Shown: piece after piece, positions 4,041 to 52,307 of the stretch
Layout of the letters: each line of letters opens with the position of its first letter
How positions within the stretch are numbered: the stretch's first letter is position 1
From: Agelas oroides
Lineage: Eukaryota > Porifera > Demospongiae > Agelasida > Agelasidae
Assembly: GCA_949130485.1 (NCBI GenBank)
Contig: OX422197.1
Location: 3,974,205-4,038,204, forward strand
Direction of reading: 5' to 3'
DNA length: 64,000 nt
Made by a program: the position numbers and the translations under genes
The notes under the pieces: generated by a model
Told to the model about the DNA's origin: nothing
What the model saw: only the letters and a program-made list of their open reading frames with translations
Database searches by the model: none

Positions 4041-4079
4041 TTTTCACCACTGTGTAAGTCCTGTGAAGCTCGTGCAAGC

Positions 4080-10050: not shown

Positions 10051-10730
10051 GATAAGGTGCTGTGATGCACGTGCAAGTGGCAGGAAAGATCGAGAAATCA
10101 CCTTACACCACTGTGGAGGCCTTGTGAAGCTCGTGCAAGCCTGTGTATATGCGGGAAAGACTTGCTAAAGCCGTTTTCACCGCCGATGAGGTGCTGTGAA
10201 GCTGCTGAAAGCCTGTTTATGTGCGTCAATGACCTGATAAGGCCCTTTTAACCGCCGATGAGGTGCTGTGATGCACGTTCAAGTGCCAGGAAAGATCGAG
10301 AAAGCACCTTTTACCACAGTGGAGGCCTTGTGAAGCTCGTGCAAGCCTGTGTATGTGCGGGAAAGACATGCTAAAGCCGATTTCACCGCCGATAAGGTGC
10401 TGTGATGCACGTGCAAGTGCCAGGAAATATCGAGAAATCACCTTACACCACTCTGGAGGCCTTGTGAAGCTCGTGCAAGCCTGTGTATATGCGGGAAAGA
10501 CTTGTTAAAGCCGTTTTCACCGCCGATGAGGTGCTGTGAAGCTGCTGCAAGCCTGTTTATGTGCGTCAATGACCTGATAAGGCCCTTTTAACCGCCGATG
10601 AGGTGCTGTGATGCACGTTCAAGTGCCAGGAAAGATCGAGAAAGCACCTTTTACCACAGTGGAGGCCTTGTGAAGCTCGTGCAAGCCTGTGTATGTGCGG
10701 GAAAGACTTGCTAAAGCCTTTTTCACCGCC
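10051..10730 (+). repeat. 340-bp tandem duplication inside the satellite
   Basis: The segment starting GATAAGGTGCTGTGATGCAC at 10,051 repeats at 10,391. The GTGCGTCAATGACC marker repeats at 10,221 and 10,561, giving the same 340-bp offset. Scattered single-base differences indicate moderate age. The GTGCGTCAATG variant is also a marker for related segments near 8.66, 11.75, 17.1, 18.6, 19.9, 22.1 and 23.5 kb. Confidence 0.8.
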
Positions 10731-12129
10731 GATGAGGTGCTGTGAAGCTTCTTCAAGCGTGTTTATGTGTGGGAAAGACCTGATAAGGCCGTTTTAACCG
10801 CCGTTAAGGTGCTGTGAAGCCCGTGAAGGCTCGTTTAAGTGTCAGGAAAGATCAAAAAGCAGTTTTAACTACTGAGAAGGCCCTGTGATGCTTGTGCAAG
10901 CCTGTGTATGTGAGGGAAAGAACTGACAGCCGTTTTGACCGCCGTGAAGGTGCTGTGAAGCTGATGCAAGCCTGTTCATGTGCGGGAAAGACCTGATAAG
11001 GCCGTTTTAACCGCCGATGAAGTGCTGTGAAGCACGTGCAATCCTGCTCAAATGCCGGGAAAGATAGAGAAAGCAGTTTTCACCACTGTGAAGTTCCTGT
11101 GGAACGCGTGTAATCCTGTGTATATGCTGGAATGACCTGACAAAGTTATTTTAACTGCCGAGAATGTGCTGTGAAGCCCGTGGAGGCTGGTTTAAGTGTC
11201 AGGAAAGATCTAAAATGCAGTTTTAACTACTGAGGAGGCACTGTGATGCTTATGCAAGCCTATGTATGTGCGGGAAAGACTTGCTAAAGACGTTTTAAAC
11301 GCCGAGGCGATGCTGTGAAGCTCTTGCAAGCCTGTTTATGTGCGGGAAAGACCTGATATAGCCGTTTTAACCTCCGATGAGGTGCTGTGATGCAAGTGCA
11401 AGTGCCAGGAAAGATCGAGAAAGCACATTTCACCACTGTGGTGGCCTTGTGAAGCTCGTGCAAGACTGTGTATGTGCGGGAAAGACTTGCTAAAGACGTT
11501 TTCACCGCCGATGAGGTGCTATGAAGCTGCTGCAAGCCAGTTTATGTGCGGGAAAGACCTGATAAGGCCCTTTTAACCGCCGATGAGGTGCTGTGATGCA
11601 CGTGCTATTGCCAGGAAAGATCGAGAAAGCACCTTTCACCGCTGTGGAGGCCCTGTGAAGCTCGTGCAAGCCTGTGTATGTGCGGGAAAGACTTGTTAAA
11701 GCCGTTTTCACCGCGGATGAGGAGCTGTCAAGCTGCTGAAAGCCTGTTTATGTGCGTCAATGACCTGATAAGGCCCTTTTAAACGCCGATGAGGTGCTGT
11801 GATGCTCGTTCAAGTGCCAGCAAAGATCGAGAATGCACCTTTTACCACAGTGGATGCCTTGTGAAGCTCGTGCAAGCCTGTGTATGTGCGGGAAAGACAT
11901 GCTAAAGCCGTTTTCACCGCTGATGAGGTGCTGTGAAACTCCTTCAAGCGTGTTTATGTGTGGGAAAGACCTGATAAGGCCGTTTTAACAGCCGTGAAGG
12001 TGCTGTGAAGTCCGTGAAGGCTCATTTAAGTGTCAGGAAAGATCAAAAAGCAGTTTTAACTACTGAAAAGGCCCTGTGATGCTTATGCAAGCCTGTGTAT
12101 GTGAGGGAAAGACCTGACAGCCGTTTTGA

Positions 12130-14540
12130 CCGCCGTGAAGGTGCTGTGAAGCTGCTGCAAGCCTGTTCATGTGCGGGAAAGACCTGATAAGGCCGTTTTA
12201 ACCGCCGATGAGGTGCTGTGAAGCACGTGCAATCCTGTTTAAGTGCCGGGAAAGATTTAGAAATCAGTTTTCACCACTGTGAAGGTCCTGTGGAACTCAT
12301 GTAATCCTGTGTATATGCTGGAATGACCTGACTAAGTCATTTTAACTGCCGAGAATGTGCTGTGAAGCCCGTGAAGGGTGTTTTAAGAGTCAGGAAAGAT
12401 CTAAAAAGCAGTTTTAACAAGTGAGAAAGCCCTGTGATGCTTGTGCAAGCCTGTGTATGTGCGGGAATGACCTGACAAAGGCGTTTTGACCGCCGTGAAG
12501 GTGCTGTGAAGTTGCTGCAAGCCTGTTTATGTGCGGGAAAGACCTGATAAAGCCGTTTTAACCGCCGATGAGGTGCTGTGAAGCACGTGTAATCCTGTTT
12601 AAGTGCCAGGAAAGATCCAGAAAGCAGTTTTCACCACTGTGGAAGCCTTGTGAAGCTCGTGCAAGCCTGTGTATGTGCGGGAAAGACTTGCTAAAGCCGT
12701 TTTAACCATCGAGGAGGTGCTGTGAAGCTCTTCCAAGCCTGTTTATGTGCGGGAAAGACCTGATAAAGCCGTTTTAACCGCCGACGAGGTGCTGTGATGC
12801 ACGTTCAACCCTGTTTATGTGTGAGAAAGACCTGATAAGGCCGTTTTACCCGCCGAGGAGGTGCTGTGAAGCACGTGTAATCATGTTTAAGTACCAGGAT
12901 AGATCGAGAAAGCAGTTTTCTCCACTGTGAAAATCTTGTGGAACTTGTGTAATCCTGTGTATATGCTGGAATGACCTGACAAAGTCATTTTAACTGCCGA
13001 TAATGTGCTGTGAAGACAGAGGAGGGTGGTTTAAGCGTCAGGAAATATCTAAAAAGCAGTTTTAACAAGTGAGAAAGCCCTGTGAAGCTCGTGCAAGCCT
13101 GTGTATGTGCGGGAAAGACTTGCTAAAGCCGTTTTCACCGCCGATGAGGTGCTGTAAAGCTCTTTCAAGCCTGTTTATGTGCGGGAAAGACCTGATAAAG
13201 CCGTTTTAACCGCCGATGAGGTGCTGTGATACACGTGCAAGTGGCAGGAATGATCGAGAAAGCACCTTTTACCACAGTTGAGGCCTTGTGAAGCTCGTGC
13301 AAGCCTGTGTATGTGAGGGAAATACCTGACAGCCGTTTTGACCGCCGTGAAGGTGCTGTGAAGCTGCTGCAAGCCTGTTCGTGTGCGGGAAAGACCTGAT
13401 AAGGCCGTTTTAACCGCCGATGATGTGCTGTGAAGCACGTGCAATCCTGTTTAAGTGCCGGGAAAGATTTAGAAATCAGTTTTCACCACTGTGAAGGTCC
13501 TGTGGAACTCATGTAATCCTGTGCATATGCTGGAATGACCTGACTAAGTCATTTTAACTGCCGAGAATGTGCTGTGAAGCCCGTGAAGGGTGTTTTAAGA
13601 GTCAGGAAAGATCTAAAAAGCAGTTTTAACAAGTGAGAAAGCCCTGTGATGCTTGTGCAAGCCTGTGTATGTGCGGGAATGACCCGACAAAGACGTTTTG
13701 ACCGCCGTGAAGGTGCTGTCAAGTTGCTGCAAGCCTGTTTATGTGCGGGAAAGACCTGATAAAGCCGTTTTAACCGCCGATGAGGTGCTGTGAAGCACGT
13801 GTAATCCTGTTTAAGTGCCAGGAAAGATCCAGAAAGCAGTTTTCACCACTGTGGAAGCCTTGTGAAGCTCGTGCAAGCCTGTGTATGTGCGGGAAAGACT
13901 TGCTAAAGGCGTTTTAACCATCGAGGAGGTGCTGTGAAGCTCTTGCAAGCCTGTTTATGTGCGGGAAAGACCTGATAAAGCCGTTTTAACCGCCGACGAG
14001 GTGCTGTGATGCACGTTCAACCCTGTTTATGTGCGAGAAAGACCTGATAAGGCCGTTTTACCCGCCGAGCAGGTGCTGTGAAGCACGTGTAATCATGTTT
14101 AAGTACCAGGATAGATCGAGAAAGCAGTTTTCTCCACTGTGAAAATCATGTGGAACTCGTGTAATCCTGTGTATATGCTGGAATGACCTGACAAAGTCAT
14201 TTTAACTGCCGATAATGTGCTGTGAAGACAGTGGAGGGTGGTTTAAGCGTCAGGAAATATCTAAAAAGCAGTTTTAACAAGTGAGAAAGCCCTGTGAAGC
14301 TCGTGCAAGCCTGTGTATGTGCGGGAAAGACTTGCTAAAGCCGTTTTCACCGCCGATGAGGTGCTGTAAAGCTCTTGCAAGCCTGTTTATGTGCGGGAAA
14401 GACCTGATAAAGCCGTTTTAACCGCCGATGAGGTGCTGTGATACACGTGCAAGTGGCAGGAAAGATCGAGAAGGCACCTTTTACCACAGTCGAGGCCTTG
14501 TGAAGCTCGTGCAAGCCTGTGTATGTGCGAGAAAGACTTG
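12130..14540 (+). repeat. 1,212-bp higher-order repeat, two copies
   Basis: Three markers keep the same spacing of 1,212 bp: GATTTAGAAATCAG at 12,254 and 13,466, GAAGGGTGTTTTAAGAG at 12,373 and 13,585, and GGAGGGTGGTTTAAGCG at 13,021 and 14,233. The length corresponds to about 17 monomers, one of them short. Single-base differences are common, so this duplication is older than the 3,550-bp one. Confidence 0.85.
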
Positions 14541-15050
14541 CTAAAGCCGTTTTCACCGCCGATGAGGTGCTGTAAAGCTCTTGCAAGCCTGTTTATGTGT
14601 GGGAAAGACCTGATAAAGCCGTTTTAACCGCCGATGAGGTACTGTGATGCACGTGCAAGTGCCAGGAAAGATCGAGAAAGCACCTTTTACCACAGTTGAG
14701 GCCTTGTGGAGCTCGTGCAAGCCTGTGTATGTGCGAGAAAGACTTGCTAAAGCCGTTTTCACCGCCGATGAGGTGCTGTGAAGCTCTTTCCAGCCTATTT
14801 ATTTGCGTGAAAGACCTGATAAAGCCGTTTTAACCGCCGATGAGGTGCTGTGATGCACGTGCAAGTGCCAGGAAAGATCGAGAAAGCACCTTTTACCACA
14901 GTTGAGGCCTTGTGAAGCTCGTGCAAGCCTGTGTATGTGCGAGAAAGACTTGCTAAAGCCGTTTTCACCGCCGATGATGTGCTGTGAAGCTCTTTCCAGC
15001 CTGTTTATGTGCGGGAAACACCTGATAAAGCCGTTTTAACCGCCGATTAG
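14301..15050 (+). repeat. 206-bp trimeric higher-order repeat, four copies
   Basis: The marker TCGTGCAAGC occurs at 14,301, 14,507, 14,713 and 14,919, so the spacing is exactly 206 bp each time. Each unit is two 72-bp monomers plus a 62-bp monomer carrying AGCACCTTTTACCACAGT. Confidence 0.85.
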
Positions 15051-18000
15051 GTACGTGCAATCCTGTTTAAGTGCCGGGAAGAATTGAGAAAGCAGTTTTC
15101 ACCACTGTGAACGTCCTGTGGAACTCGTGTAATCCTGTGTATATGCTGGAATGACCTGACAAGGTCATTTTAAATGCCGAGAATGTGCTGTGAAGCCCGT
15201 GGAGGCTCGTTTAAGTGTCAGGAAAGATCTAAAAAGCAGTTTTAACAAGTGAGAAAGCCCTGTGAATTTTGTGCAAGCCTGTGTATGTGCGAGAAAGACC
15301 TGACAAAGCCGTTTTCACCGCCGTGAAGGTGCTGTGAAACTGCTGCAAGCCAGTTTATGTGCGGGAAAGACCTGATAAAGCCGTTTTAACCGCCGATGAG
15401 GTGCTGTGAAGCACGTGCAATCCTGTTTTAAGTGCCAGGAAGGATCGAGAAAGCAGTTTTCACCACTGTAGAAGCCTTGTGAAGCTCGTGCAAACCGGTG
15501 TATGTGTGGGAAAAACTAGCTAAAGCCGTTTTCACCATCGAGGAGGTGCTGTGAAGCTCTTGCAAGCCTGTTTATGTGCGGGAAATACCTGATAAAGCCG
15601 TTTTAACCGCCGATGTGGTGACCTGACGCACGTTGAACCCTGTTTATGTGCGGATAAGACCAGATAAAGCCGTTTTAACCGCCGATGAGGTGCTGTGATG
15701 CACGTGCAAGTGCCAGGAAAGATCGAGAAAGCACCTTTCAGCACTGTGGAGGCCTTGTGAAGCTCGTGCAAGCCTGTGTATGTGCGGGAAAGATTTGCTA
15801 AAGCCGTTTTCATCGCCGATGAGGTGCTGTGAAGATGCTGCAAGCCTGTTTATGTGCGGGACAGACCTGATAAGGCCCTTTTAAGCGCCGATGAAGTGCT
15901 GTGATGCACGTGCAACTGCTAGGAAAGAACGAGAAACCACCTTTTACCACAGTGGAGGCCTTGTGAAGCTCGTGCAAGCCTGTGTATGTGCGGGAAAGAC
16001 TTCCTAAAGCCGTTTTCACCGCCGATGAGGTGCTGTGAAGCTGCTGCAAGCCTGTTTATGTGCGGGAAAGACCTGATAAAGCCGTTTTAACCGGCGATGA
16101 GGTGCTGAGAAGCACGTGCAATCCTGTTTACGTGCCGGGAAAGATTGTGAAAGCACTTTTCACCACTGTGAAGATCCTGTGGAACTCGTGTATTCCTGTG
16201 TATATGCTGGAATGTCCTGAGAAAGTCATTTTAACTTCCGAGAATATGCTGTGAAGCCCGTGGAGGCTGGTTTAAGTGTCAGGAAAGATCTAAAAAGCAG
16301 TTTTAACTACTGAGGTGGCTCTGTGATGCTTGTGCAAGCCTGTGTATGTGCGGGAAAGACTTGCTAAAGACGTTTTAAACGCCGTGGCGGTGCTGTGAAG
16401 CTCTTGCAAGCCTGTTTATGTGCGGGAAGGACCTGATATAGCCGTTTTTACCGCCGATGAGGTGCTGTGAAGCTGCTGCAAGCCTGTTTATGTGCGGGAA
16501 AGACCTGATAAGGCCCTTTTAACCGCCGATGAGGTGCTGTGATGGACGTGCAAGTGCCAGGAAAGATCGAGAAAGAACCTTTTACCACAGTGTAGGCCTT
16601 TTGAAGCTCGTTCAAGCCTGTGTATGTGCTGGAAAGACTTGCTAAAGCCGTTTTCACCGTCGATGAGGAGCTGTGAAGCTGCTGCAAACCTGTTTATGTG
16701 CGGGAAAGACCTGATAAGGCCGTTTTAAACCCCGAGGAGGTGCTGTGTAGCACGTGGAATCATGTTTAAGTGCCAGGAAAGATCGAGAAAGCAGTTTTCA
16801 CCACTGTGGAGACCTTGTGAAGCTCGTGCAAGCCTGTGTATATGCGGAATGACTTGCTAAAGCCGTTTTCAACGTCGATGAGGTGCTGTGAAGCTGCTGC
16901 AAGCCGGTTTATGTGCGAGAAAGACCTCATAAAGCCGTTTTGACCGCCGATTAGGTGCTGTGATGCACGTGCATGTGCCAGGAAAGATCGAGAAAGCGCC
17001 TTACACCACTGTGGAGGCCTTGTTAATCTCGTGCAAGACTGTGTATGTGCGGGAAAGACTTGCTAAAGCCGTTTTCACCGCCGATGAGGTGCTGTGAAGC
17101 TGCTGAAAGCCTGTTTATGTGCGTCAATGACCTGATAGGGCTCTTTTAACCGCCGAAGAGGTGCTGTGATGCACGTTCAAGTGCCAGGAAAGATCGAGAA
17201 AGCATCTTTTACCACAGTGGAGGCCTTGTGAAGCTCGTGCAAGCCTATGTATGTGCGGGAAAGACTTGATAAAGCCGTTTTCACCGCCGATGAGGTGCTT
17301 TGAAGCTCCTTCAAGCGTGTTTATGTGTGGGAAAGACCTGATAAGGCCGTTTTAACCGCCGTTAAAGTGCTGTGAAGCCCGTGAAGGCTCGTTTAAGTGT
17401 CAGGAAAGATCAAAAAGCAGTTTTAACTACTGAGAAGACCCTGTGATGCTTGTGCAAGCCTGTGTATGTGAGGGAAAGACCTGACAGCCGTTTTAACCGC
17501 CGTGAAGGTGCTGTGAAGCTGCTGCAAGCCTGTTCATGTGCGGGAAAGACCTGATAAGGCCGTTTTAACCGCCGATGAAGTGCTGTGAAGCACGTGCAAT
17601 CCTGTTTAAGTGCCTGGAAAGATTTAGAAATCAGTTTTCACCACTGTGAAGCTCCTGTGGAACTCATGTAATCCTGTGTATATGCTGGAATGACCTGACA
17701 AAGTCATTTTAACTGCCGAGAATGTGCTGTGAAGCCCGTGAAGGGTGGTTTAAGAGTCAGGAAATATCTAAAAAGCAGTTTTAACAAATGAGAAAGCCCT
17801 GTGATGCTTGTGCAAGCCTGTGTATGTGCGGGAATGACCTGACAAAGCCGTTTTGACCGCCATGAAGGTGCTGTGAACTTGCTGCTAGCCTGTTTATGTG
17901 CGGGAAAGACCTGATAAAGCCGTTTTAACCGCCGACGAGGTGCTGTGATGCACGTTCAACCCTGTTTATGTGCGGGAAAGACCTGATAAGGCCGTTTTAC

Positions 18001-18259
18001 CCGCCGAGGAGGTGCTGTGAAGCACGTGTAATCATGTTTAAGTACCAGGATAGATCGAGAAAGCAGTTTTCTCCACTGTGAAAGTCATGTGGAACTCGTG
18101 TAATCCTGTTTATATGCTGGAATGACCTGACAAAGTCATTTTAACTGCCGAGAATGTGCTGTGAAGCCAGTGGAGGGTGATTTAAGCGTCAGGAAAGATC
18201 TAAAAAGCAGTTTTAACAAGTGAGAAAGCACTGTGAAGCTCGTGCAAGCCTGTGTATGT

Positions 18260-21200
18260 GCGGGAAAGACTTGCTAAAGCCGTTTTCACCGCCGATAAGG
18301 TGCTGTGATGCACGTGCAAGTGCCAGGAAAGATCGAGAAATCACTTTTCCCCACAGTGGAGGCCCTGTGAAGCTCGTGCAAGCCTGTGTATGTGCGGGAA
18401 AGACTTGCTGAAGCCGATTTCACCGCCGATAAGGTGCTGTGATGCACGTGCAAGTGCCAGGAAATATCGAGAAATCACCTTACACCACTCTGGAGGCCTT
18501 GTGAAGCTCGTGCAAGACTGTGTATATGCGGGAAAGACTTGCTAAAGCCGTTTTCACCGCCGATGAGGTGCTGTGAAGCTGCTGCAAGCCTGTTTATGTG
18601 CGTCAATCACCTGATAAGGCCCTTTTAACCGCCGTTGAGGTGCTGTGATGCACGTTCAAGTGCCAGGAAAGATCGAGAAAGCATCTTTCACCACAGTTGA
18701 GGCCTTGTGAAGCTCGTGCAAGCCTGTGGATGTGCGGGAAAGACTTGCTAAAGCCGTTTTCACTGCCGATGAGGTGCTGTGAAGCTTCTTCAAGCGTGTT
18801 TATGTGTGGGAAAGACCTGATAAGGCCGTTTTAACCGCCTTTAAGGTGCTGTGAAGCCCGTGAAGGCTCGTTTAAGTGTCAGGAAAGATCAAAAAGCAGT
18901 TTTAATACCTGAGAAGGCCCTGTGATGCTTGTGCAAGCTTGTTCATGTGCGGGAAAGACCTGATAAAGCCGTTTTAACCGCCGATGAGGTGCTGTGAAGC
19001 ACGTGTAATCCCGTTTAAGTGCCAGGAAAGATCCAGAAAGCAGTTTTCACCACTGGGGAAGCCTTGTGAAGCTCATGGAAACCTGTGTATGTGCGGGAAA
19101 GACTTGCTAAAGCCGTTTTAACCATCGAGGAGGTGCTGTGAAGCTCTTCCAAGCCTGTTTATGTGCGGGAAAGACCTGATAAAGCCGTTTTAACCGCCGA
19201 CGAGGTGCTGTGATGCATGTTCAACACTGTTTATGTGCGGGAAAGACCTGATAAGGCCGTTTTACCCGCCGAGGAGGTGCTGTGAAGCACGTGTAATCAT
19301 GTTTAAGTACCAGGATAGATAGAGAAAGCAGTTTTCTCCACTGTGAAAGTCATGTGGAACTCGTGTAATCCTGTGTATATGCTGGAATGACCTGACAAAG
19401 TCATTTTAACTGCCGATAATGTGCTGTGAAGACAGTGGAGGGTGGTTTAAGCGTCAGGAAATATCTAAAAAGCAGTTTTAACAAGTGAGAAAGCCCTGTG
19501 AAGCTCGTGCAAGCCTGTGTATGTGCGGGAAAGACTTGCTAAAGCCGTTTTCACCGCCGATGAGGTGCTGTAAAGCTCTTGCAAGCCTGTTTATGTGCGG
19601 GAAAGACCTGATAAAGCCGTTTTAACCGCCGATGAGGTGCTGTGATACACGTGCAAGTGGCAGGAAAGATCGAGAAAGCACCTTTTACCACAGTTGATGC
19701 CTTGTGAAGCTCGTGCAAGCCTGTGTATGTGCGAGAAAGACTTGCTAAAGCCGATTTCACCGCCGATAAGGTGCTGTGATGCACGTGCAAGTGGCAGGAA
19801 AGATCGAGAAATCACCTTACACCACTCTGGAGGCCTTGTGAAGCTCGTGCAAGCCTGTGTATGCGTGGGAAAGACTTGCTAAAGCCGTTTTCTCCGCCGA
19901 TGAGGTGATGTGAAGTTGCTGTAAGCCTGTTATGAGCGTCAATGACCTGATAAGGCCCTTTTAACCGCCGATGAGGTGCTGTGATGCACGTTCAAGTGCC
20001 AGGAAAGATCGAGAAAGCACCTTTTACCACAGTGGAGGCCTTGTGAAGCTCGTGCAAGCCTGTGTAAGTGCGAGAAAGACTTGCTAAAACCGTTTTCACC
20101 GCCGATGAGGTGATGTGAAGCTCCTTCAAGCGTGTTTATGTGTGGGAAAGACCTGATAAGGCCGTTTTAACCGCCGTGAAGGTGCTGTGAAGCCCGTGAA
20201 GGCTCATTTAAGTGTCAGGAAAGATCAAAAAGCAGTTTTAACTACTGAGAAGGCCCTGTAATGCTTGTGCAAGACTGTGTATGTGAGGGAAAGACCTGAC
20301 AGCCGTTTTGACCGCCGTGAAGGTGCTGTGAAGCTGCTGCAAGCCTGTTCATGTGCGGGAAAGACCTGATAAGGCCGTTTTAACCGCCGATGAGGTGCTG
20401 TGAAGCACGTGCAATCCTGTTTAAGTGTCGGGAAAGATTGAGAAATCAGTTTTCACCACTGTAAAGGTCCTGTGAAACTCGTGTAATCCTGTGTATATGC
20501 TGGAATGACCTGACAAAGTCATTTTAACTGCCGAGAATGTGCTGTGAAGCCCGTGGAGGTTGGTTTAAGTGTCAGGAAAGATCTAAAAAGCAGTTTTAAC
20601 AAGTGAGAAAGCCCTGTGAATCTTGTGCAAGCCAGAGTATGTGCGGGAAAGACCTGACAAAGCCGATTTGACCGCCGTTAAGGTGCTGTGAAGTTGCTGC
20701 CAGCCAGTTTATGTGCGGGAAAGACCTGATAAAGCCGTTTTAACCGCCGATGAGGTGCTGTGATGCACTTTCAACCCTGTTTATGTGCGGGAAAGACCTG
20801 ATAGAGCCGTTTTAAACGCCGATGAGGAGCTGTGAAGGACGTGCAATCCTGTTTAAGTGCCGGGAAATATTGAGAAAGCAGTTTTCACCACTGTGAAGGT
20901 CATGTGGAACTCGTGTAGTCCTGTGGAACTCGTGTAGTCCTGTGTATATTCTGGAATGACCTTACAAAGTCATTTTAACTGCCGAGAATGTGCTGTGAAG
21001 CACGTGGAGGCTGGTTTAAGAGTCAGGAAAGATCAAAATGCAGTATTAACTACTGAGAAGGCACTGTGATGCTTGTGCAAGCCTGTGTATGTGCGGGAAA
21101 GACTTGCTAAAGCCGTTTTCACCGCCGATGAGGTGTTGTAAAGCTGCTGCAAGCCTGTTGATGGGCGGAAAGACCTGATAAGGCCGTTTTAACCGCCGAT

Positions 21201-21809
21201 GAGGTGCTGTGAAGCACGTGCAATCCTGTTTAAGTGCCAGGAAAGATCCAGAAAGCAGTTTTCACCACTGTGGAAGCCTTGTGAAGCTCGTGCAAGCCTG
21301 TGTATGTGCGGAAGGACTTGCTAAAGCCGTTTTAACCATCGAGGAGGTGCTGTCAAGCTCTTGCAAGCCTGTTTATGTGCGGGAAAGACTTGATAAAGCC
21401 GTTTTAACCGCCGATGTGGTGCTCTAATGCACGTTGAACCTTCTTTATGTGCGGGAAAGACCTGACAAAGCCGTTTTAACCGCAGAGGAGGTGCTGTGAT
21501 GCACGTTCAACCCTGTTTATGTGCGGGAAAGACCTGATTAGGCGTTTTACCCGCCGAGGAGGTGCTGTGAAGCACGTGTAATCATGTTTAAGTACCAGGA
21601 TAGATCGAGAAAGCAGTTTTCTCCACTGTGAAAGTCCAGTGGAACTCGTGTAAACCTGTGTATACGCTGGAATGACCTGACAAAGTCATTTTAACTGCCG
21701 AGAATGTGCTGTGAAGTCCGTGGAGGGTAGTTTAAGTGTCAGGAAAGCTCTAAAAATCAGTTTTAACAAGTGAGAAAGCCCTGTGAACCTTGTGCAAGCC
21801 TGTGTATGG
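18260..21809 (+). repeat. 3,550-bp tandem duplication, copy 1
   Basis: The whole 3.55-kb block of satellite is repeated immediately downstream. All landmark variants are present at a constant +3,550 offset. By eye I found two substitutions: T at 19,462 versus G at 23,012, and T at 19,698 versus G at 23,248. Upstream, similarity drops to ordinary satellite divergence at about 18,259, where T pairs with G at 21,809. Confidence 0.92.
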
Positions 21810-24800
21810 GCGGGAAAGACTTGCTAAAGCCGTTTTCACCGCCGATAAGGTGCTGTGATGCACGTGCAAGTGCCAGGAAAGATCGAGAAATCACTTTTCC
21901 CCACAGTGGAGGCCCTGTGAAGCTCGTGCAAGCCTGTGTATGTGCGGGAAAGACTTGCTGAAGCCGATTTCACCGCCGATAAGGTGCTGTGATGCACGTG
22001 CAAGTGCCAGGAAATATCGAGAAATCACCTTACACCACTCTGGAGGCCTTGTGAAGCTCGTGCAAGACTGTGTATATGCGGGAAAGACTTGCTAAAGCCG
22101 TTTTCACCGCCGATGAGGTGCTGTGAAGCTGCTGCAAGCCTGTTTATGTGCGTCAATCACCTGATAAGGCCCTTTTAACCGCCGTTGAGGTGCTGTGATG
22201 CACGTTCAAGTGCCAGGAAAGATCGAGAAAGCATCTTTCACCACAGTTGAGGCCTTGTGAAGCTCGTGCAAGCCTGTGGATGTGCGGGAAAGACTTGCTA
22301 AAGCCGTTTTCACTGCCGATGAGGTGCTGTGAAGCTTCTTCAAGCGTGTTTATGTGTGGGAAAGACCTGATAAGGCCGTTTTAACCGCCTTTAAGGTGCT
22401 GTGAAGCCCGTGAAGGCTCGTTTAAGTGTCAGGAAAGATCAAAAAGCAGTTTTAATACCTGAGAAGGCCCTGTGATGCTTGTGCAAGCTTGTTCATGTGC
22501 GGGAAAGACCTGATAAAGCCGTTTTAACCGCCGATGAGGTGCTGTGAAGCACGTGTAATCCCGTTTAAGTGCCAGGAAAGATCCAGAAAGCAGTTTTCAC
22601 CACTGGGGAAGCCTTGTGAAGCTCATGGAAACCTGTGTATGTGCGGGAAAGACTTGCTAAAGCCGTTTTAACCATCGAGGAGGTGCTGTGAAGCTCTTCC
22701 AAGCCTGTTTATGTGCGGGAAAGACCTGATAAAGCCGTTTTAACCGCCGACGAGGTGCTGTGATGCATGTTCAACACTGTTTATGTGCGGGAAAGACCTG
22801 ATAAGGCCGTTTTACCCGCCGAGGAGGTGCTGTGAAGCACGTGTAATCATGTTTAAGTACCAGGATAGATAGAGAAAGCAGTTTTCTCCACTGTGAAAGT
22901 CATGTGGAACTCGTGTAATCCTGTGTATATGCTGGAATGACCTGACAAAGTCATTTTAACTGCCGATAATGTGCTGTGAAGACAGTGGAGGGTGGTTTAA
23001 GCGTCAGGAAAGATCTAAAAAGCAGTTTTAACAAGTGAGAAAGCCCTGTGAAGCTCGTGCAAGCCTGTGTATGTGCGGGAAAGACTTGCTAAAGCCGTTT
23101 TCACCGCCGATGAGGTGCTGTAAAGCTCTTGCAAGCCTGTTTATGTGCGGGAAAGACCTGATAAAGCCGTTTTAACCGCCGATGAGGTGCTGTGATACAC
23201 GTGCAAGTGGCAGGAAAGATCGAGAAAGCACCTTTTACCACAGTTGAGGCCTTGTGAAGCTCGTGCAAGCCTGTGTATGTGCGAGAAAGACTTGCTAAAG
23301 CCGATTTCACCGCCGATAAGGTGCTGTGATGCACGTGCAAGTGGCAGGAAAGATCGAGAAATCACCTTACACCACTCTGGAGGCCTTGTGAAGCTCGTGC
23401 AAGCCTGTGTATGCGTGGGAAAGACTTGCTAAAGCCGTTTTCTCCGCCGATGAGGTGATGTGAAGTTGCTGTAAGCCTGTTATGAGCGTCAATGACCTGA
23501 TAAGGCCCTTTTAACCGCCGATGAGGTGCTGTGATGCACGTTCAAGTGCCAGGAAAGATCGAGAAAGCACCTTTTACCACAGTGGAGGCCTTGTGAAGCT
23601 CGTGCAAGCCTGTGTAAGTGCGAGAAAGACTTGCTAAAACCGTTTTCACCGCCGATGAGGTGATGTGAAGCTCCTTCAAGCGTGTTTATGTGTGGGAAAG
23701 ACCTGATAAGGCCGTTTTAACCGCCGTGAAGGTGCTGTGAAGCCCGTGAAGGCTCATTTAAGTGTCAGGAAAGATCAAAAAGCAGTTTTAACTACTGAGA
23801 AGGCCCTGTAATGCTTGTGCAAGACTGTGTATGTGAGGGAAAGACCTGACAGCCGTTTTGACCGCCGTGAAGGTGCTGTGAAGCTGCTGCAAGCCTGTTC
23901 ATGTGCGGGAAAGACCTGATAAGGCCGTTTTAACCGCCGATGAGGTGCTGTGAAGCACGTGCAATCCTGTTTAAGTGTCGGGAAAGATTGAGAAATCAGT
24001 TTTCACCACTGTAAAGGTCCTGTGAAACTCGTGTAATCCTGTGTATATGCTGGAATGACCTGACAAAGTCATTTTAACTGCCGAGAATGTGCTGTGAAGC
24101 CCGTGGAGGTTGGTTTAAGTGTCAGGAAAGATCTAAAAAGCAGTTTTAACAAGTGAGAAAGCCCTGTGAATCTTGTGCAAGCCAGAGTATGTGCGGGAAA
24201 GACCTGACAAAGCCGATTTGACCGCCGTTAAGGTGCTGTGAAGTTGCTGCCAGCCAGTTTATGTGCGGGAAAGACCTGATAAAGCCGTTTTAACCGCCGA
24301 TGAGGTGCTGTGATGCACTTTCAACCCTGTTTATGTGCGGGAAAGACCTGATAGAGCCGTTTTAAACGCCGATGAGGAGCTGTGAAGGACGTGCAATCCT
24401 GTTTAAGTGCCGGGAAATATTGAGAAAGCAGTTTTCACCACTGTGAAGGTCATGTGGAACTCGTGTAGTCCTGTGGAACTCGTGTAGTCCTGTGTATATT
24501 CTGGAATGACCTTACAAAGTCATTTTAACTGCCGAGAATGTGCTGTGAAGCACGTGGAGGCTGGTTTAAGAGTCAGGAAAGATCAAAATGCAGTATTAAC
24601 TACTGAGAAGGCACTGTGATGCTTGTGCAAGCCTGTGTATGTGCGGGAAAGACTTGCTAAAGCCGTTTTCACCGCCGATGAGGTGTTGTAAAGCTGCTGC
24701 AAGCCTGTTGATGGGCGGAAAGACCTGATAAGGCCGTTTTAACCGCCGATGAGGTGCTGTGAAGCACGTGCAATCCTGTTTAAGTGCCAGGAAAGATCCA

Positions 24801-25373
24801 GAAAGCAGTTTTCACCACTGTGGAAGCCTTGTGAAGCTCGTGCAAGCCTGTGTATGTGCGGAAGGACTTGCTAAAGCCGTTTTAACCATCGAGGAGGTGC
24901 TGTCAAGCTCTTGCAAGCCTGTTTATGTGCGGGAAAGACTTGATAAAGCCGTTTTAACCGCCGATGTGGTGCTCTAATGCACGTTGAACCTTCTTTATGT
25001 GCGGGAAAGACCTGACAAAGCCGTTTTAACCGCAGAGGAGGTGCTGTGATGCACGTTCAACCCTGTTTATGTGCGGGAAAGACCTGATTAGGCGTTTTAC
25101 CCGCCGAGGAGGTGCTGTGAAGCACGTGTAATCATGTTTAAGTACCAGGATAGATCGAGAAAGCAGTTTTCTCCACTGTGAAAGTCCAGTGGAACTCGTG
25201 TAAACCTGTGTATACGCTGGAATGACCTGACAAAGTCATTTTAACTGCCGAGAATGTGCTGTGAAGTCCGTGGAGGGTAGTTTAAGTGTCAGGAAAGCTC
25301 TAAAAATCAGTTTTAACAAGTGAGAAAGCCCTGTGAACCTTGTGCAAGCCTGTGTATGGGCGGGAAAGACTTG
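21810..25373 (+). repeat. 3,550-bp tandem duplication, copy 2
   Basis: This is the near-identical second copy. It continues matching for about 14 bp past one full period and then diverges at 25,374, where TTGACAAAGT stands in place of TTGCTAAAGC. Both copies retain a rare internal micro-duplication of a GTGGAACTCGTGTAGTCCT segment (about 20,910-20,942 and 24,460-24,492). That places the micro-duplication before the 3.55-kb event. Confidence 0.92.
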
Positions 25374-28300
25374 ACAAAGTCGTTTTGACCGCCGTGAATG
25401 TACTGTGAAGCTGCTGCAAGCCAGTTTATGTGCGGGAAAGACCTGACAAAGCCGTTTTGACCGCCGTTAAGGTGGTGTGAAGTTGCTGCAAGCCTATTTA
25501 TGCAGTTTTAACCACTGAGGAGCCCCTGTGTATGTGTAGTAATGACCTGATAAAGCCCTTTTAACCGCCGATGAGGTGCTGTGAAGCACGTGCAATCCTG
25601 TTTAAGTGCCAGAAAAGATCGAGTAAGCAGTTTTCACCACTGTAGAAGCCTTGTGAAGCTCGTGCAAGCCTGTGTATGTGCGGGAATGACTTTCTAAAGC
25701 CGTTTTCACCATCGAGGAGGTGCTGTGAAGCTCTTGCAAGCCTGTTTATGTGCTGGAAAGACCTGATAAAGCCGTTTTAACTGCCGATGTGGTGCTCTGA
25801 TGCACGTTGAACCCTGTTTATGTGCGGGAAAGACCTGATAAAGCCGTTTTAAACCCCGAGGAGGTGCAGTGAAGCACGTGTAACCATGTTTAAGTGCCAG
25901 GAAAGATCGAGAAAGCAGTTTCCACCACTGTGGAGGCGTTGTGAAGCCCGTGCAAGCCTGTGTATGTGCGGGAAAGACTTGCTAAAGCCGTTTTCACCGC
26001 CGATGAGGTGCTGTGAAGCTGCTGCAGGCCTGTTTATGTGTGGGAAAGACGTGACAAAGCCGTTTTAACCGCCGATAAGGTGCTGTAATGCACGTGCAAG
26101 TGCCAGGAAAGATCGAGAAAGCACCTTACACCACTGTGGAGGCCTTGTGAAGCTCGTGCAAGCCTGTGTATGTGCGGGAAAGACTTGCTAAAGCCGTTTT
26201 CATCGCCGATGAGGTACTGTGAAGCTGCTGAAATCCTGTTTATGTGCGTCAATGACCTGATAAGGCCCTTTTAACCGCCGATGAGGTGCTGTGATGCTCG
26301 TTCAAGTGCCAGGAAAGATCGAGAAAGCAACTTTTACCACAGTGGAGGCCTTGTGAAGCTCGTGCAAGCCTGTGTATGTGCGGGAAAGACTTGCTAAAGC
26401 CGTTTTAACCGCCGATAAGGTGCTGTGAAGCTCCTTCAAGAGTGTTTATGTGTGGGAAAGACCTGATAAGGCCGTTTTAACCGCCGTTAAAGTGCTGTGA
26501 AGCCCGTGAAGGCTCGTTTAAGTGTCAGGAAAGATCAAAAAGCAGTTTTAGCTACTGAGAAGGCCCTGTCAGCTTGTGCAAGCCTGTGTATGTGAGGGAA
26601 AGACCTGACAAAGCCGTTTTGACCGACGTGAAGGTGCTGTGAAGCTGCTGCAAGCCTGTTCATGTGCGGGAAAGACCTGATAAGGCCGTTTTAACCGCCG
26701 ATGAGGTGCTGTGAAGCACGTGCAATCCTGTTTAAGTGCCGGGAAAGATTGAGAAAGCCACTGTGAAGGTCCTGTGGAACTCATGTAAACCTGTGTATAT
26801 GCTGGAATGACCTGACAAAGTCATTTTAACTGCCGAGAATGTGCTGTGAAGCCCGTGAAGGGTGGTATAAGAGTCAGGAAAGATCTAAAAAGCAGTTTTA
26901 ACAAGTGAGAAAGCCCTGTGATGCTTGTGCAAGCCTGTGTATGTGCGGGAATGATCTGACAAAGTCGTTTTCACTGCCGTGAAGGTGCTGTGAAGTTGCT
27001 GTGAAGTTGCTGCAAGCCTGTTTATGAGCGGGAAGGACCTGATAAAGCCGTTTTAACCGCCGATGAGGTGCGGTGAAGCACATGCAATCCTGTTTAAGTG
27101 CCAGGAAAGATCCGGAAAGCAGTTTTCACCACTGTGGAAGCCTTGTGAAGCTCGTGCAAGCCTGTGTATGTTCGGGAAAGACTTGCTAAAGCCGTTTTAA
27201 CCAACGAGGAGGTGCTTTGAAGCTCTTGCAAGCCTGTTTATGTGCGGGAAAGACCTGATAAAGCAGTTTTAACCGCCGATGTGGTGCTCTGATGCACGTT
27301 GAACCCTGTTTTATGTGTGGGAAAGACCTGATAAAGCCGTTTTAACCGCCGATGAGGTGCTGTGATGCAGGTGCAAGTGCCAGGAAAGATCGAGAAAGCA
27401 CTTTTCACCACTGTGGAGGCCTTGTGAAGCTCGTGCAAGCCTGTGTATGTGCGGGAAAGACTTGCTAAAGCCGTTTTCACCGCCGATGAGGTGCTGTGAA
27501 GATGCTGCAAACCTGTTTATGTGCGGGACAGACCTGATAAGGCCCTTTTAAGCGCCGATGAAGTGCTGTGATGCACGTGCAAGTGCCAGGAAAGATCGAG
27601 AAAGCACCTTTTACCACAGTGGAGGCCTTGTGAAGCTCGTACAAGCCTGTGTATGTGCGGGAAAGACTTGCTAAAGCCGTTTTCACCGCCGATGTGTTGC
27701 TGTGAAGCTGCTTCAAGCGTGTTTATGTGTGGGAAAGTCCTCATAAGGCCGTTTTAACCGCCGTTAAGGTGCTGTGAAGCCCGTGAAGGCTCGTTTAAGT
27801 ATCAAGAAAGATCAAAAAGCAGTTTTAACTACTGAGAAGGCCCTGTCATGCTTGTGCAAGCCTGTGTATGTGAGGGAAAGACCTGACAAAGCCGTTTTGA
27901 CCGCCGTGAAGGTGCTGTGAAGCTGCTGCAAGCCTGTTCATGTGCGGGAAAGTCCTGATAAGGCCGTTTTAACCGCCGATGTGGTGCTGTGAAGCACGTG
28001 CAATTCTGTTTAAGTGCCGGGAAAGATTTAGAAATCAGTTTTCACCACTGTGAAGGTCCTGTGGAACTCATGTAATCCTGTGTATATGCTGGAATGACCT
28101 GACAAAGTCATTTTAACTTCCGAGAATGTGCTGTGAAGCCCGTGAAGGGTGGTTAAAGAGTCAGGAAAGATCTTAAAAGCTGTTTTAACTAGTTAGAAAG
28201 CCCTGTGATGCTCGTGCAAGCCTGTGTATGTGCGGGAATGACCTGACAAAGCCGTTTTGACCGCCATGAAGGTGCTGTGAAGTTGCTGCAAGCCTGTTTA

Positions 28301-29436
28301 TGTGCGGGAAAGACCTGATAAAGCCGTTTTAACCGCCGATGACGTGCAGTGATGCACGTGCAATTCTGTTTAAGTGCCAGGAAAGATCCAGAAAGCAGTT
28401 TTCACCACTGTGGAAGCCTTGTGAAGCTCGTGCAAGCCTGTGTATGTGCGGGAAAGACTTGCTTAAGCCGTTTAAACCGCCGATGTGGTGCTCTGATGCA
28501 CGTTGAACCTTGTTTATGTGCGGGGAAGAGCTGATAAAACCGTTTTAACCGCCGATGAGGTGCTGTGATGCACGTTCAACCCTGTTTATGTGCGGGAAAG
28601 ACCTGATAAGGCCGTTTTACGCGCCAAGGAGGTGCTGTGAAGCACGTGTATTCATGTTTAAGTACCAGGATAGATCGAGAAAGCAGTTTTCTCCACTGTG
28701 AAAGTCATGTGGAACTCGTGTAATCCTGTGTATATGCTGGAATGACCTGACAAAGTCATTTTAAATTCCGAGAATGTGCTGTGAAGCCCGTGGTGGGTGG
28801 TTTAAAGCGTCAGGAATGATCTAAAAAGCAGTTTTAACAAGTGAGAAAGCCCTGTGAATCTTGTGCAAGCCTGTATATGTGCGGGAAAGAACTGACAAAG
28901 CCGTTTTGACAGCCGTAAAGGTGCTGTGAAGTTGCTGCAAGCCAGTTTATGTGCGGGAAAGACCTTATAAAGCCGTTTTAACCGCCGATGAGGTGCTGTG
29001 ATGCACGTCCAACCCTGTTTGTGTGCGGGAAAGACCTGATAAAGCCGTTTTAAACGCCGATGAGGAGCTGTGAAGGACGTGCAATCCTGTTTAAGTGTCG
29101 GGAAAGATTAAGAAAGCAGTTCTCACCACTGTGAAGGTCCTGTGGAACTCGTGTAATCCTATGTATATGCTGGAATGACCTTACAAGGTCATTTTAACTG
29201 CCGAGAATGTGCTGTGAAACCCGTGGAGGCTGGTTTAAGTGTCAGGAAAGATCAAAAAGCAGTTTTAACTGCTGAGAAGGCACTCTGATGCTTGTGCAAG
29301 CCTGTGTATGTGCGGGAAAGACCTGACAAAGCCGTTTTGACCGCCGTGAAAGTGCTGTGAAGCTGCAGCAAGCCTGTTTATGTGCGCGGGAAAGATCTGG
29401 TAAGGCCGTTTTAACCGCCGATGAGGTGCTGGGAAG

Positions 29437-29711
29437 CGGGAATACGCTAAATTCACCCGGTTTGAAACCTTATGAATAATTAATCAGTACGTTTAACCCC
29501 TTTGATACGAGTAAGCAAATGTCATGAAGAAAGCTATATCAGTCACAGAACGAGATTCACTTGCCATGTATTGGTCTTCTCCATCTGCTACAATACTGGC
29601 ACTGAGATAGCAGGTAAGGCTGTTCAGGGAGGTACTTTGAAATGGCCATTTTGAAGCCTCTGCCATTTCAAAGCCTCTGGGCATGGAATGGATCAGCTGG
29701 CTATACATATA
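29437..29711. other. Unique 275-bp patch interrupting the satellite
   Basis: The satellite stops within a monomer at about 29,436 and resumes at about 29,712 in a different monomer phase. The patch has no resemblance to the 72-bp unit. It contains a perfect 12-bp stem, CTTTGAAATGGC at 29,635-29,646 and GCCATTTCAAAG at 29,662-29,673, with a 15-nt loop. A minus-strand open frame runs through it but is partly satellite-derived, and I recognise no protein family. No target-site duplication is evident. It could be a fragment of a mobile element or of flanking unique DNA. Confidence 0.7.
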
Positions 29712-32700
29712 CTGACAAAGTGATTTTAAGGGCAGAGAATGTGCTGTGAAGCACGTGGAGGCTGGTTTAAGTGTCAGCAAAGATCAAAAGGCAGTTTTAA
29801 CTGCTGAGAAGGCCCTATGAAGCTTGTGCAAGCCTGTGTATGTGCGGGAAAGGCCTGACAAAGCCATTTTGACCGCTGTGAATGTGCTGTGAAGCTGCTG
29901 CAAGCCTGTTTATGTCCGGGAAAGACCTGATAAGGCCGTTTTAAACCCCGAGGAGATGCTGTGAAGCACATGTAATCATGTTTAAGTGCCAGGAAAGATC
30001 GAGAAAGCAGTTTTCACAACTGTGGAGGCCTTGTGAAACTCGTGCAAGCCTGTGTATGTGCGGGAAAGACTTGCTAAAGCCGTTTTCACCGCCGATGTGG
30101 TGCTGTGAAGCTGCTGAAAGCCTGTTGCTGGGTAGAAAGACCTGATAAGGCCGTTTTAACCGCCGATGCGGTGCTGTGAAGCACGTGGAATCCTGTTTAA
30201 GTGCCAGGAAAGATTGTGAAAGCAGTTTTCACCACTGAGAAGATCCTGTGGAACTGGTGTAATCCTGTGTATATGCAGGAATGACCTGACAAAGTCATTT
30301 TAACTTCCGAGAATGTGCTGTGACGCCCGTGGAGGCTGGTTTATGTGTCAGGAAAGATCTGAAAAGCAGTTTTAACTACTGAGAAGGCCCTGTGAAGCTT
30401 GTACAAGCCTGTTTATGTGCGGAAAACACCTGACAAAGCCATTTTGACCGCCGTGAAGGTGCTATGGAGCTGCTGGAAGCCTGTTTATGTGCGGGAATGA
30501 CCTGATAAGGCCGTTATAAACTCCGAGGAGGTGCTGTGAAGCACGTGTAATCATGTTTAAGTGCCAGGAAAGATCGAGAAAGCAGTTTTCACCACTGTGG
30601 AGGCGTTGTGAAGCTCGTGCAAGCCTGTGTATGTGCGGGAAAGACTTGCTAAAGCCGTTCTCACTGCCGAGGAGGTGTTGTAAAGCTGCTGCGAGCCTGT
30701 TGATGGGTGGAAAGACCTGATAATGCCGTTTTAACCGCCGATGAGGTGCTGTGAAGCACGTGGAATCCTGTTTAAGTGCCGGGAAAGATTGAGAAAGCAG
30801 TTCTCACCACTGTGAAGGTCCTGTGGAACTCGTGTAATCCTGTGTATATGCTGGCATGACCTTACAAAGTCATTTTAACTGCCGAGAATGTGCTGTGAAT
30901 CCCGTGGAGGCTGGTTTAAGTGTCAGGAAAGATCAAAAAGCAGTTTTAACTACTGAGAAGGCACTGTGATGCTTGTGCAAGCCTGTGTATGTGCGGGAAA
31001 GACCTGACAAAGCCGTTTTGACCGCCGTGAAGGTGCTGTGAAGCTGCTGCAAGCCTGTTTATGTGCGTGGGGAAGACCTGAGAAGGCCATTTTAACGCCG
31101 ATGAAGTGCTGTAAAGCTCTTGCAAGCCTGTTGATGTGCGGGAAAGACCTGATAAAGCCATTTTAACCGCCGATGAGGTGCTGTGAAGCACGTGCAAGCC
31201 TGTTGATGTGCGGGAAAGACCTGATAAAGCACGTTTAACCGCGGATGAGGTGCTGTGAAGCACGTGCAATCCTGTTTAAGTGCCGGGAAAGATTGAGAAA
31301 GCAGTTCTCACCACTGTGAAGGTCCTGTGGAACTCGTGTAATCCTGTGTATATGCTGGAATCACCTGACAAAGTCATTTTAACTGCCGAGAATGTACTGT
31401 GAAGCCCGTGGAGGCTGGTTTAACTCTCAGGAAAGATGTAGAAAGCAGTTTTAACTACTAAGGCGGCCCTGCGATGCTTGTGCAAGCTTGTGTATGTGCG
31501 GGATAGACTTGCTAAAGACGTTTTAAACGCCGAGGCGGTGCTGTGAAGCTCTTGCAAGCCTGTTTATGTGCGGGAAAGACCTGATATAGCCGTTTTAACC
31601 GCCAATGAGGTGTTGTGATGCACGTGCAAGTGCCAGCAAAAATGGAGAAAGCACGTTTCACCACTGTGGAAGCCTTGTGAAGCTCGTGCAAGCCTGTGTA
31701 TGTGCGGGAAAGACTTGCTAAAGCTGTTTTCATCGCCGATGAGGTGCTGTGAAGCAGCTGCAAGCCTGTATATCTGCGGGAAAGACCTGATAAGGCCGTT
31801 TTAAACCCCGAGGAGGTGCTGTGAAGCACATGTAATCATGTTTAAGTGCCAGGAAAGATCGAGAAAGCAGTTTTTACCACTGTGGAGGCCTTGTGAAGCT
31901 CGTGCAAACCTGTGTATGTGCGGGAAAGACTTGCTAAAGCCGTTTTCACCGCCGATGAGGCGCTGTGAAGATGCTGCAAGCCTGTTTATGTGCGGGAAAG
32001 ACCTGATAAAGCCGTTTTAACCGCAGATAAGGTGCTGTGATGCACGTGCAAGTGCAAGGAAAGATCGAGAAAGCACCTTACACCACTGTGGAGGATTTGT
32101 GAAGCTCGTGCAAGCCTGTGTATGTGCGGGAAAGACTTGCTAAAGCCGTTTTCACCGCCGATGCGGTGCTGTGAAGCTGCTGAAAGCCTGTTAATATGCG
32201 TCAATGACCTGATAAGGCCCTTTTAACCGCCGTTAAGGTGCTGTGATGCACGTTCAAGTGCCAGGAATAATCGAGAAAGCACCTTTTACCACAGTGGAGG
32301 CCTTGTGAAGCTCGTGCAAGCCTGTGTATGTGCGGGAAAGACTTGCTAAAGCCGTTTTCACCGCCGATGAGGTGCTGTGAAGCTCCTTCAAGCGTGTTTA
32401 TGTGTGGGAAAGACCTGTTTTAACGGCCGTGAAGGTGCTGTGAAGCCCGTGAAGGCTCGTTTAAGTTTTAGGAAAGATCAAAAAGCAGTTTTAACTACTG
32501 AGAAGTCCCTGTGATGCTTGCGCAAGCCTGTGTATGTGAGGGAAAGACTTGACAAAGCTATTTTGACCGCCGTGAATGTGCTGTGAAGCTGCTGCAAGCC
32601 TGTTCATGTGCGGGAAGGATCTGATAAGTCCGTTTTAACCGCTGATGAGGGGCTGTGAAGCAAGTGCATCCTGTTTCAGTGCCGGGAAAGATTGAGAAAG

Positions 32701-34944: not shown

Positions 34945-35394
34945 TAGCCTCGTTCCCAGGCCCGCGCCCAGCTTCCCGTCGCTTGCCGTACGGTTAAGCG
35001 GGAGAGGGACTGGTACATTTTCTCACGTGAGTGACGTCACGGGTAGAAAGGCGGTAGAAAGACTTCAATTGAACGTGGGCGAGCACGACTAAATTGCTCA
35101 CTGATTGCTGGTGTGTGTCTTCACTGTTTTGGCTCGGTAAAACTCTCTGTCCTCCCAACTGTCTCGTGAATAGCGACATAAAAGCGCCTTCGTGCGCTGC
35201 CATCTTTCGACTCGGAATAGTCGCGCTACAGTGCGTGCGTGCAAGCGAAGTGTTTTGTGGTTTACATGACGCCCACGTTCGCATAATTTGCCCTGTCCGT
35301 GACGTCACTCACGTGAGGAAATGTACCAGGCCCTCTCCCGCTTAACCGTCCTGCAAGCGCCGGGAAGCTGGGCGAGGGCCTGGGAACGAGGCTA
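34945..35394. mobile_element. TAGCCTCG-ended TIR element (MITE-like), 450 bp
   Basis: The ends are long inverted repeats. The left begins TAGCCTCGTTCCCAGGCC and the right ends GGCCTGGGAACGAGGCTA, and similarity continues inward past CTCCCGCTTAACC-type sequence to CACGTGAGTGACGTCAC. A 9-bp target-site duplication flanks it inside a satellite monomer. Two overlapping open frames (104 codons minus, 83 codons plus) exist only because the arms are complementary, and no transposase motif is seen. A 9-bp duplication would fit Mutator-like or related cut-and-paste superfamilies, but the family is not assigned. Confidence 0.88.
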
Positions 35395-35403
35395 GTGTTC
35401 TGA
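35395..35403 (+). repeat. 9-bp target-site duplication, right
   Basis: GTGTTCTGA, one mismatch from the left copy at 34,936-34,944. The satellite continues directly from here. Confidence 0.8.
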
Positions 35404-52304: not shown

Positions 52305-52307
52305 TTG

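What the first reader, a model, noticed from the sequence alone, without database searches (positions are those of the whole stretch)
18260..25373. 3,550-bp satellite block duplicated in tandem with almost no divergence
Neighbouring monomers differ at many positions, yet these two 3.55-kb blocks differ at only two sites that I could find. This means very recent unequal exchange, ongoing homogenisation, or an assembly duplication (for example two haplotypes placed in series).
Basis: seen in the sequence. Interest (0 to 1): 0.72.

Follow-up and report, generated by a model that had tools for sequence, protein, structure and literature searches.

The report
Recent duplication in candidate centromere satellite
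A 3.55-kb block of a 72-base tandem repeat has recently been copied side by side, an ordinary event for such repeats, but the repeat array looks like part of a centromere and faces a reversed array across a stretch of DNA related to that on two other chromosomes.

Summary
Copies 18,260-21,809 and 21,810-25,359 (lag 3,550) differ at exactly two sites, both T in copy 1 and G in copy 2; 14 further bases (25,360-25,373) are shared. Each copy holds 50 monomers of a ~72-bp satellite whose monomers otherwise agree at ~75%.

The new junction is in register inside one monomer, has 14 bp of shared sequence, and ends a ~360-bp tract of ~94% homology, as in-register unequal exchange would leave. Random joins at 3-4 kb lag are in register 1.4% of the time. 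Similar duplications occur elsewhere on C15 and on C1, so the block is not unusual in kind. An assembly artefact is unlikely but no reads were available.

The setting is more interesting. In the one large complete hit list, 59 of 61 satellite hits lie at one internal place per contig in a 259-Mb genome, so this is a candidate centromeric satellite. In the three cores read (C5, C11, C15), plus and minus satellite arms face each other across 10-14 kb carrying a related repeat. Centromere function was not testable.

The parts
18260..21809 (+). copy 1 of the 3,550-bp tandem duplication (50 satellite monomers); T at 19,462 and 19,698
21810..25359 (+). copy 2 of the duplication (50 monomers); G at 23,012 and 23,248
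21781..21851 (+). recombinant monomer at the new junction: left part as in monomer 25,331-25,400, right part as in monomer 18,231-18,301; the exchange lies within the 14 bp at 21,810-21,823
25360..25373 (+). 14 bp after copy 2 identical to the first 14 bp of each copy (junction homology)
17900..18259 (+). left flank, about 94% identical over roughly 360 bp to the end of the block (about 21,450-21,809)
   Evidence: alignment, identity counted by eye from it; limits approximate
28..50097 (+). plus-strand satellite arm of ~72-bp monomers; 28-47,935 and 48,598-50,097 in the HMM map
50098..60397 (.). 10.3-kb core without a satellite array (short groups of 2-3 monomers at 55,890-56,077 and 59,532-59,671), with inverted-repeat elements and (CCCTCACC)n tracts, between arms of opposite orientation
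52451..54043 (+). degenerate core-element copies (best 53,030-53,277) alternating with (CCCTCACC)n; related copies in the C11 and C5 cores
58802..59460 (+). second group of core-element copies (58,802-59,012 and 59,290-59,460)
59586..59780 (.). satellite fold-back palindrome, 97-nt arms 1 nt apart, 91% complementary, in the short satellite patch before the minus arm
   Evidence: sequence read
60398..64000 (-). minus-strand satellite arm (goes on beyond the window to C15:4,051,795 with two short plus-strand patches)

Best explanation
The block is a real, very recent tandem segmental duplication in a ~72-bp satellite array. Two homologous but non-allelic sites about 3.55 kb apart paired (on sister chromatids or homologues) and exchanged inside one monomer, turning L-B-R into L-B-B-R; the other product would carry a deletion. 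SHOWN: two copies, two differences, an in-register recombinant monomer, 14 bp of junction homology at the end of a ~94% identical tract, and other near-identical repeats at lags from about 0.6 to 14 kb with 0-4% divergence. INFERRED: crossover rather than a replication-based route, and that the duplication is not an assembly product. The array is most likely part of its chromosome's centromere or pericentromere, where such exchanges make and homogenise satellite; that role rests on map position only.
For: Exact limits and two differences. Monomers 18,231-18,301, 21,781-21,851 and 25,331-25,400 have the same phase and type. Left-flank homology of ~94% over ~360 bp up to the junction, divergence at once on the right. 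Of 179,672 simulated joins at 3-4 kb lag, 1.4% were in register and 0.18% shared at least 14 bp. Comparable repeats: C15 lag 7,575 (17 differences in 7,264 bp), lag 2,585 (9 in 1,584), lag 980 (0 in 940), lag 647 (11 in 1,175), lag 1,212 (18 in 1,224); C1 lags 14,034 (8 in 4,932), 14,033 (11 in 5,046), 13,750 (8 in 5,128). Map position.
Against: No read depth or spanning reads, so a false duplication is not excluded; the comparable repeats come from the same assembly. The exchange sits at the right edge of the homology tract, which also fits microhomology-mediated template switching. No CENP-A, FISH or Hi-C evidence for a centromere; no CENP-B box (motif recalled, not universal). Two satellite hits lie outside the clusters.
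Confidence: 0.85

Rival explanations
1. Assembly duplication: the assembler placed two haplotypes, or the same reads twice, in series.
For: Only two differences in 3,550 bp, a level that haplotypes or residual errors could give; both are G/T. Satellites are where assemblers fail.
Against: No N in the window. The breakpoint is in register at a homologous site, with only 14 identical bases across it, short for a read overlap. Other repeats on C15 and C1 span 0-4% divergence, though they come from the same assembly.
Confidence: 0.08
2. Replication-based duplication (template switching or break-induced replication at the 14-bp homology) rather than crossover.
For: Short perfect homology at the junction and immediate divergence on its right. 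A fold-back palindrome in the core suggests that inverted template switching also happens here.
Against: A ~360-bp tract of ~94% identity adjoins the junction and register is kept, as homologous exchange predicts. The product is the same, so sequence alone does not decide.
Confidence: 0.3
3. The array is a non-centromeric heterochromatic satellite (knob, piRNA locus, or pericentromere only), and the duplication has no link with a centromere.
For: No functional mapping. Strays at C9:4,165,033 and C12:7,569,453. Contigs C6, C8, C10, C13, C17 and C21 gave no listed hit, and C2, C7, C19 and C23 only one place each.
Against: 59 of 61 hits of the complete exact list lie at one place per contig. Spans of 138-387 kb at relative positions 0.35-0.82 on ten contigs.
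Confidence: 0.25

Closest known systems
Human alpha-satellite arrays: unequal crossing-over and saltatory amplification (PMC11062924; passages seen)
   Same: Tandem monomers, recent multi-kb amplification, large inversions reported across some primate arrays, internal position on the chromosome.
   Different: Monomer ~72 bp against ~171 bp; two monomer types that alternate loosely, without a uniform higher-order array in the window; spans of a few hundred kb; no CENP-B box.
Candida tropicalis and fission-yeast inverted-repeat centromeres (PMC4741521; passages seen)
   Same: Flanks of opposite orientation around a core that shares sequence between chromosomes; at C11 the arms are near-identical inverted repeats.
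   Different: Here the arms are tandem satellite arrays, which that paper says repeat-associated fungal centromeres lack; arms on C15 and C5 are not near-identical; kinetochore binding is unknown.
Candidate centromere tandem repeats of 282 animals and plants (PMC4053949; passages seen)
   Same: Abundant tandem repeat; monomer length and GC vary between species; dimer-type higher-order structure is common.
   Different: 'sponge' and 'Amphimedon' do not occur in its main text; the species here is unnamed, so no match could be tested.

Membership tests
Tandem segmental duplication by unequal exchange in a satellite | two adjacent near-identical copies | tested here: met
   2 differences in 3,564 aligned bp
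Tandem segmental duplication by unequal exchange in a satellite | junction in register within a monomer, at homologous sequence | tested here: met
   monomers at 18,231, 21,781 and 25,331 same phase and type; 1.4% of random joins are in register
Tandem segmental duplication by unequal exchange in a satellite | reciprocal deletion product | not testable with these tools
   needs other haplotypes
Centromeric satellite | one internal cluster on every chromosome | tested here: inconclusive
   59 of 61 exact hits at one place per contig on 12 contigs; listed hits on 17 contigs over all pattern searches, but C6, C8, C10, C13, C17 and C21 gave none, four listings were cut, and four contigs had a single place
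Centromeric satellite | CENP-A / kinetochore occupancy | not testable with these tools
   no chromatin data
CENP-B-box satellite | NTTCGNNNNANNCGGGN motif (recalled) | tested here: not met
   0 in the window array and 0 in 264 kb; with one mismatch 1 per strand in the window array against 6.35 in base shuffles
Inverted-repeat (fission-yeast-like) centromere | arms of opposite orientation around a core | tested here: met
   3 of 3 cores read (C5, C11, C15), two of them chosen for their hits; of 11 contigs with at least 5 listed hits, 6 are mainly plus then minus by eye, 5 mixed or one-sided; C18 (4 hits) is minus x3 then plus
Inverted-repeat (fission-yeast-like) centromere | near-identical arms | tested here: inconclusive
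   met on C11 (6,955 bp at 99.9%, outer pieces 98.6-99.4%); not on C15 (at most 424 bp between satellite stretches in the 45 rows printed) or C5 (at most 340 bp at 91.8%)
Inverted-repeat (fission-yeast-like) centromere | kinetochore on the core | not testable with these tools
   no chromatin data

The most novel reading that the evidence does not exclude
The satellite marks a regional centromere with a compound layout that I did not see in the listings: long tandem-satellite arms facing each other across a 10-14 kb core with a shared, transposon-derived repeat, the arms being renewed by segmental exchange (as in the 3.55-kb block) and, on C11, by arm-to-arm copying. It would join the fission-yeast-type inverted layout to a satellite centromere.
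Probability: 0.25. Interest if true: 0.75.

Novelty: new member of a known kind. Interest (0 to 1): 0.38.

Why it matters
The duplication is a clean case of the exchange that builds satellite arrays: both parental monomers and the recombinant one can be read in one sequence. If the array is the centromere, this genome offers centromeres of only a few hundred kb (one 200-N gap in the 264 kb of C15 read) in which the relation between satellite, inverted layout and a shared core can be tested directly.

Tried and rejected
CENP-B box: not found. Protein genes in the core: three ORFs of 124-208 aa gave no Pfam match above the curated cut-off, one sub-threshold match (17 against 27 bits). RNA families: 0 Rfam matches in the window at gathering scores. 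A C15 palindrome like that of C11: not seen. The two longest inverted matches in 264 kb, 1,505 bp (3,834,209/3,872,292) and 673 bp (3,924,761/3,945,168), have both arms outside the satellite blocks; in satellite the largest of the 45 rows printed is 424 bp, between the minus arm and its short plus patches. A core-only element: a 32-mer at up to 1 mismatch hit only the C11 and C15 cores (5 of 5), but a 26-mer at up to 3 mismatches gave 28 hits, 18 of them away from the clusters, eight of these as four inverted pairs 0.7-2.7 kb apart (C3, C8, C9, C11), so the core unit is better read as a derivative of a dispersed inverted-repeat element. BLAST of the C11 spacer against the C15 core was run without low-complexity filter, so many of its rows are only (CCCTCACC)n; the shared element rests. 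The thought that it is a marine sponge is recalled from the style of its short inverted-repeat elements and comes from no call. Sponge centromere satellites in print: none seen in the listings (20 of 1,081 papers listed; 20 of 33; 15 of 27); one passage of PMC7385117 mentions a centromere. Solved-structure search with one flank ORF: 0 matches.

Full report
OBSERVATION. At lag 3,550 the window matches itself almost perfectly from 18,260 to 21,823 (against 21,810-25,373). Only 19,462/23,012 and 19,698/23,248 differ; mismatches begin at 18,259/21,809 on the left and 21,824/25,374 on the right. That is 2 differences in 3,564 aligned bases. Both are T in copy 1 and G in copy 2. G agrees with the TRF consensus units for these contexts, so both changes probably lie in copy 1.

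THE ARRAY. The window is G000:C15:3,974,205-4,038,204 of a 259.3-Mb genome in 141 contigs; C15 is 8.72 Mb. Of the 20 contig starts read (C1-C20), 11 hold CCCTAA repeats, so the assembly is near chromosome scale. The satellite unit is about 72 bp. In the 264 kb of C15 read, a profile HMM gives 1,974 hits, 1,882 of them near full length (1,624 plus, 258 minus). For typing, 1,796 of 1,953 aligned monomers (those with fewer than 12 gaps) were clustered in two. Neighbours are of different type in 1,363 of 1,648 adjacent pairs (687 + 676, against 66 + 219 same-type): a loose dimer structure. In the window alternation is visibly weaker, with runs of one type; 45 of the 50 monomers of copy 1 were in the clustered set.

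THE JUNCTION. Each copy contains 50 monomers. Monomers 18,231-18,301, 21,781-21,851 and 25,331-25,400 have the same phase and type. The middle one joins the left part of the third to the right part of the first, the exchange lying in 14 shared bases. To the left, the flank of copy 1 is about 94% identical over some 360 bp to the end of the block; to the right similarity falls at once. In 179,672 simulated joins at 3-4 kb lag, 1.4% were in register and 0.18% shared at least 14 bp. This is what unequal exchange between paralogous monomers leaves behind. Template switching at microhomology would give the same product and is kept as a rival.

NOT UNIQUE. Near-identical repeats recur. On C15: 7,264 bp at lag 7,575 (17 differences), 1,584 at lag 2,585 (9), 940 at lag 980 (0), 1,175 at lag 647 (11), 1,224 at lag 1,212 (18). 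On C1, in 36 kb read, a ~14-kb period: 8 differences in 4,932 bp and 11 in 5,046 at lags 14,034 and 14,033, 8 in 5,128 at lag 13,750. Among repeats over 1 kb in the sequence read, the 3.55-kb block is the least diverged. The own-genome DNA search, which scored one candidate only, reported 75-79% matches near C15:4.24 Mb.

ARTEFACT? No N lies in the window; in the 264 kb of C15 there is one 200-N gap, at 4,060,293-4,060,492. Two haplotypes in series would not be expected to break in register at a homologous site. The recurring repeats come from the same assembly, so they support but do not prove a biological process. Reads are needed.

GENOME-WIDE POSITION. An exact 41-mer across a monomer border has 61 hits, all listed; the control (pattern read backwards) has 0. 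59 of 61 lie at one place per contig on 12 contigs (four of these, C5, C16, C22 and C23, with one hit each in this list); strays are C9:4,165,033 and C12:7,569,453. Adding the other patterns gives 17 contigs: C1-C5, C7, C9, C11, C12, C14-C16, C18-C20, C22, C23. C2, C7, C19 and C23 have a single place each; C6, C8, C10, C13, C17 and C21 have no listed hit. Listings 10, 24, 32 and 33 were cut by the tool, and not only at the end: one search lists 26 exact hits on C15 where a script finds 53 in 264 kb of C15. Spans of 138-387 kb at relative positions 0.35-0.82 are seen on C1, C3, C4, C5, C9, C11, C12, C14, C15 and C20. This suits a centromeric or pericentromeric satellite. Of 22 long flank ORFs listed I searched 10 (leaving out 11 in the 57-bp repeat of L005, and L009:5,723-6,289): 3 match a tyrosine-recombinase family, 1 matches BED/Hermes DNA-binding domains, 6 match nothing.

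ORIENTATION AND CORE. In the window the plus arm ends at 50,097 and a minus arm starts at 60,398, with a 10.3-kb core between. C11, read because mirrored hit spacings suggested a palindrome, has 6,955-bp arms at 99.9% identity and outer pieces at 98.6-99.4% around a 5.3-kb spacer, with 13.5 kb between its satellite arms. A degenerate core element alternating with (CCCTCACC)n is shared by the C15 and C11 cores. A 26-mer from it at up to 3 mismatches has 28 hits: 9 inside satellite clusters (C15 4, C11 2, C5 2, C9 1), one 7.5 kb beyond the last listed C22 hit, 18 elsewhere. The cluster spans make up about 1.2% of the genome, so 0.35 would be expected; hits in one core are not independent, so this overstates the support. 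Because of its hits I read C5:7,076,001-7,094,000: plus satellite to 7,079,088, then 10.9 kb with core units and a few monomers, then mainly minus satellite from 7,090,040, continuous from 7,090,639. So 3 of 3 cores read share the layout, but they are not a random sample.

ORIENTATION ELSEWHERE. Judged by eye from listed hits on the 11 contigs with at least five: C1, C5, C9, C11, C12 and C20 are mainly plus then minus, with small reversed patches on several; C15 is plus-minus-plus; C3, C4, C14 and C22 are mixed or one-sided. C18, with four hits, is minus three times and then plus, against the trend. Six to none gives a two-sided sign test of 0.03; counting C18 it is six to one, about 0.13. The layout as a general rule is therefore not established.

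COMPARISON. It works like the expansion of human alpha satellite by unequal exchange and saltatory amplification (PMC11062924, passages). The layout recalls the inverted-repeat centromeres of Candida tropicalis and fission yeast (PMC4741521, passages), which by that paper lack tandem arrays. Membership in either is not claimed; kinetochore evidence could not be tested.

VERDICT. The finding is real and correctly measured; by itself it is an ordinary, very recent tandem duplication in a satellite. The candidate centromere layout around it is the part worth following.

Noticed in passing
G000 C11:4,658,345-4,686,000 (L047-L049): Large near-perfect palindrome in the satellite cluster: 6,955-bp arms at 99.9% around a 5.3-kb spacer, outer pieces at 98.6-99.4% up to the right end of the fetched stretch, so its full extent is unknown.
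   Followed up: partly
window 52,451-54,043 and 58,802-59,460; C11 4,669,502-4,671,757; C5 7,081,256-7,087,518: Core element in three inversion cores, related to a dispersed element seen as inverted pairs 0.7-2.7 kb apart on C3, C8, C9 and C11.
   Followed up: partly
window 59,586-59,780: Satellite fold-back palindrome (97-nt arms, 1 nt apart) where orientation flips, a likely fold-back inversion junction.
   Followed up: partly
window 50,159-51,410, 54,662-55,276, 57,423-57,815: Short inverted-repeat elements, some with ends like TAGCCTCGTTCCCAGGCC; the motif also recurs in the C15 flanks.
   Followed up: no
G000 C1:26,850,001-26,886,000 (L043-L046): ~14-kb tandem period in the same satellite, copies about 99.8% identical, a larger counterpart of the 3.55-kb block.
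   Followed up: partly
C15:3,861,637-3,863,174 (L005): Separate tandem repeat of 57-bp period, about 99% identical between copies, about 65 kb upstream of the satellite, open in several frames.
   Followed up: no
C15:3,834,209-3,835,713 and 3,872,292-3,873,796: Inverted pair of 1.5-kb segments at 99.1%; ORFs L003:494-1,327 and L006:8,462-9,103 within them match DUF3504 and a tyrosine-recombinase family.
   Followed up: no
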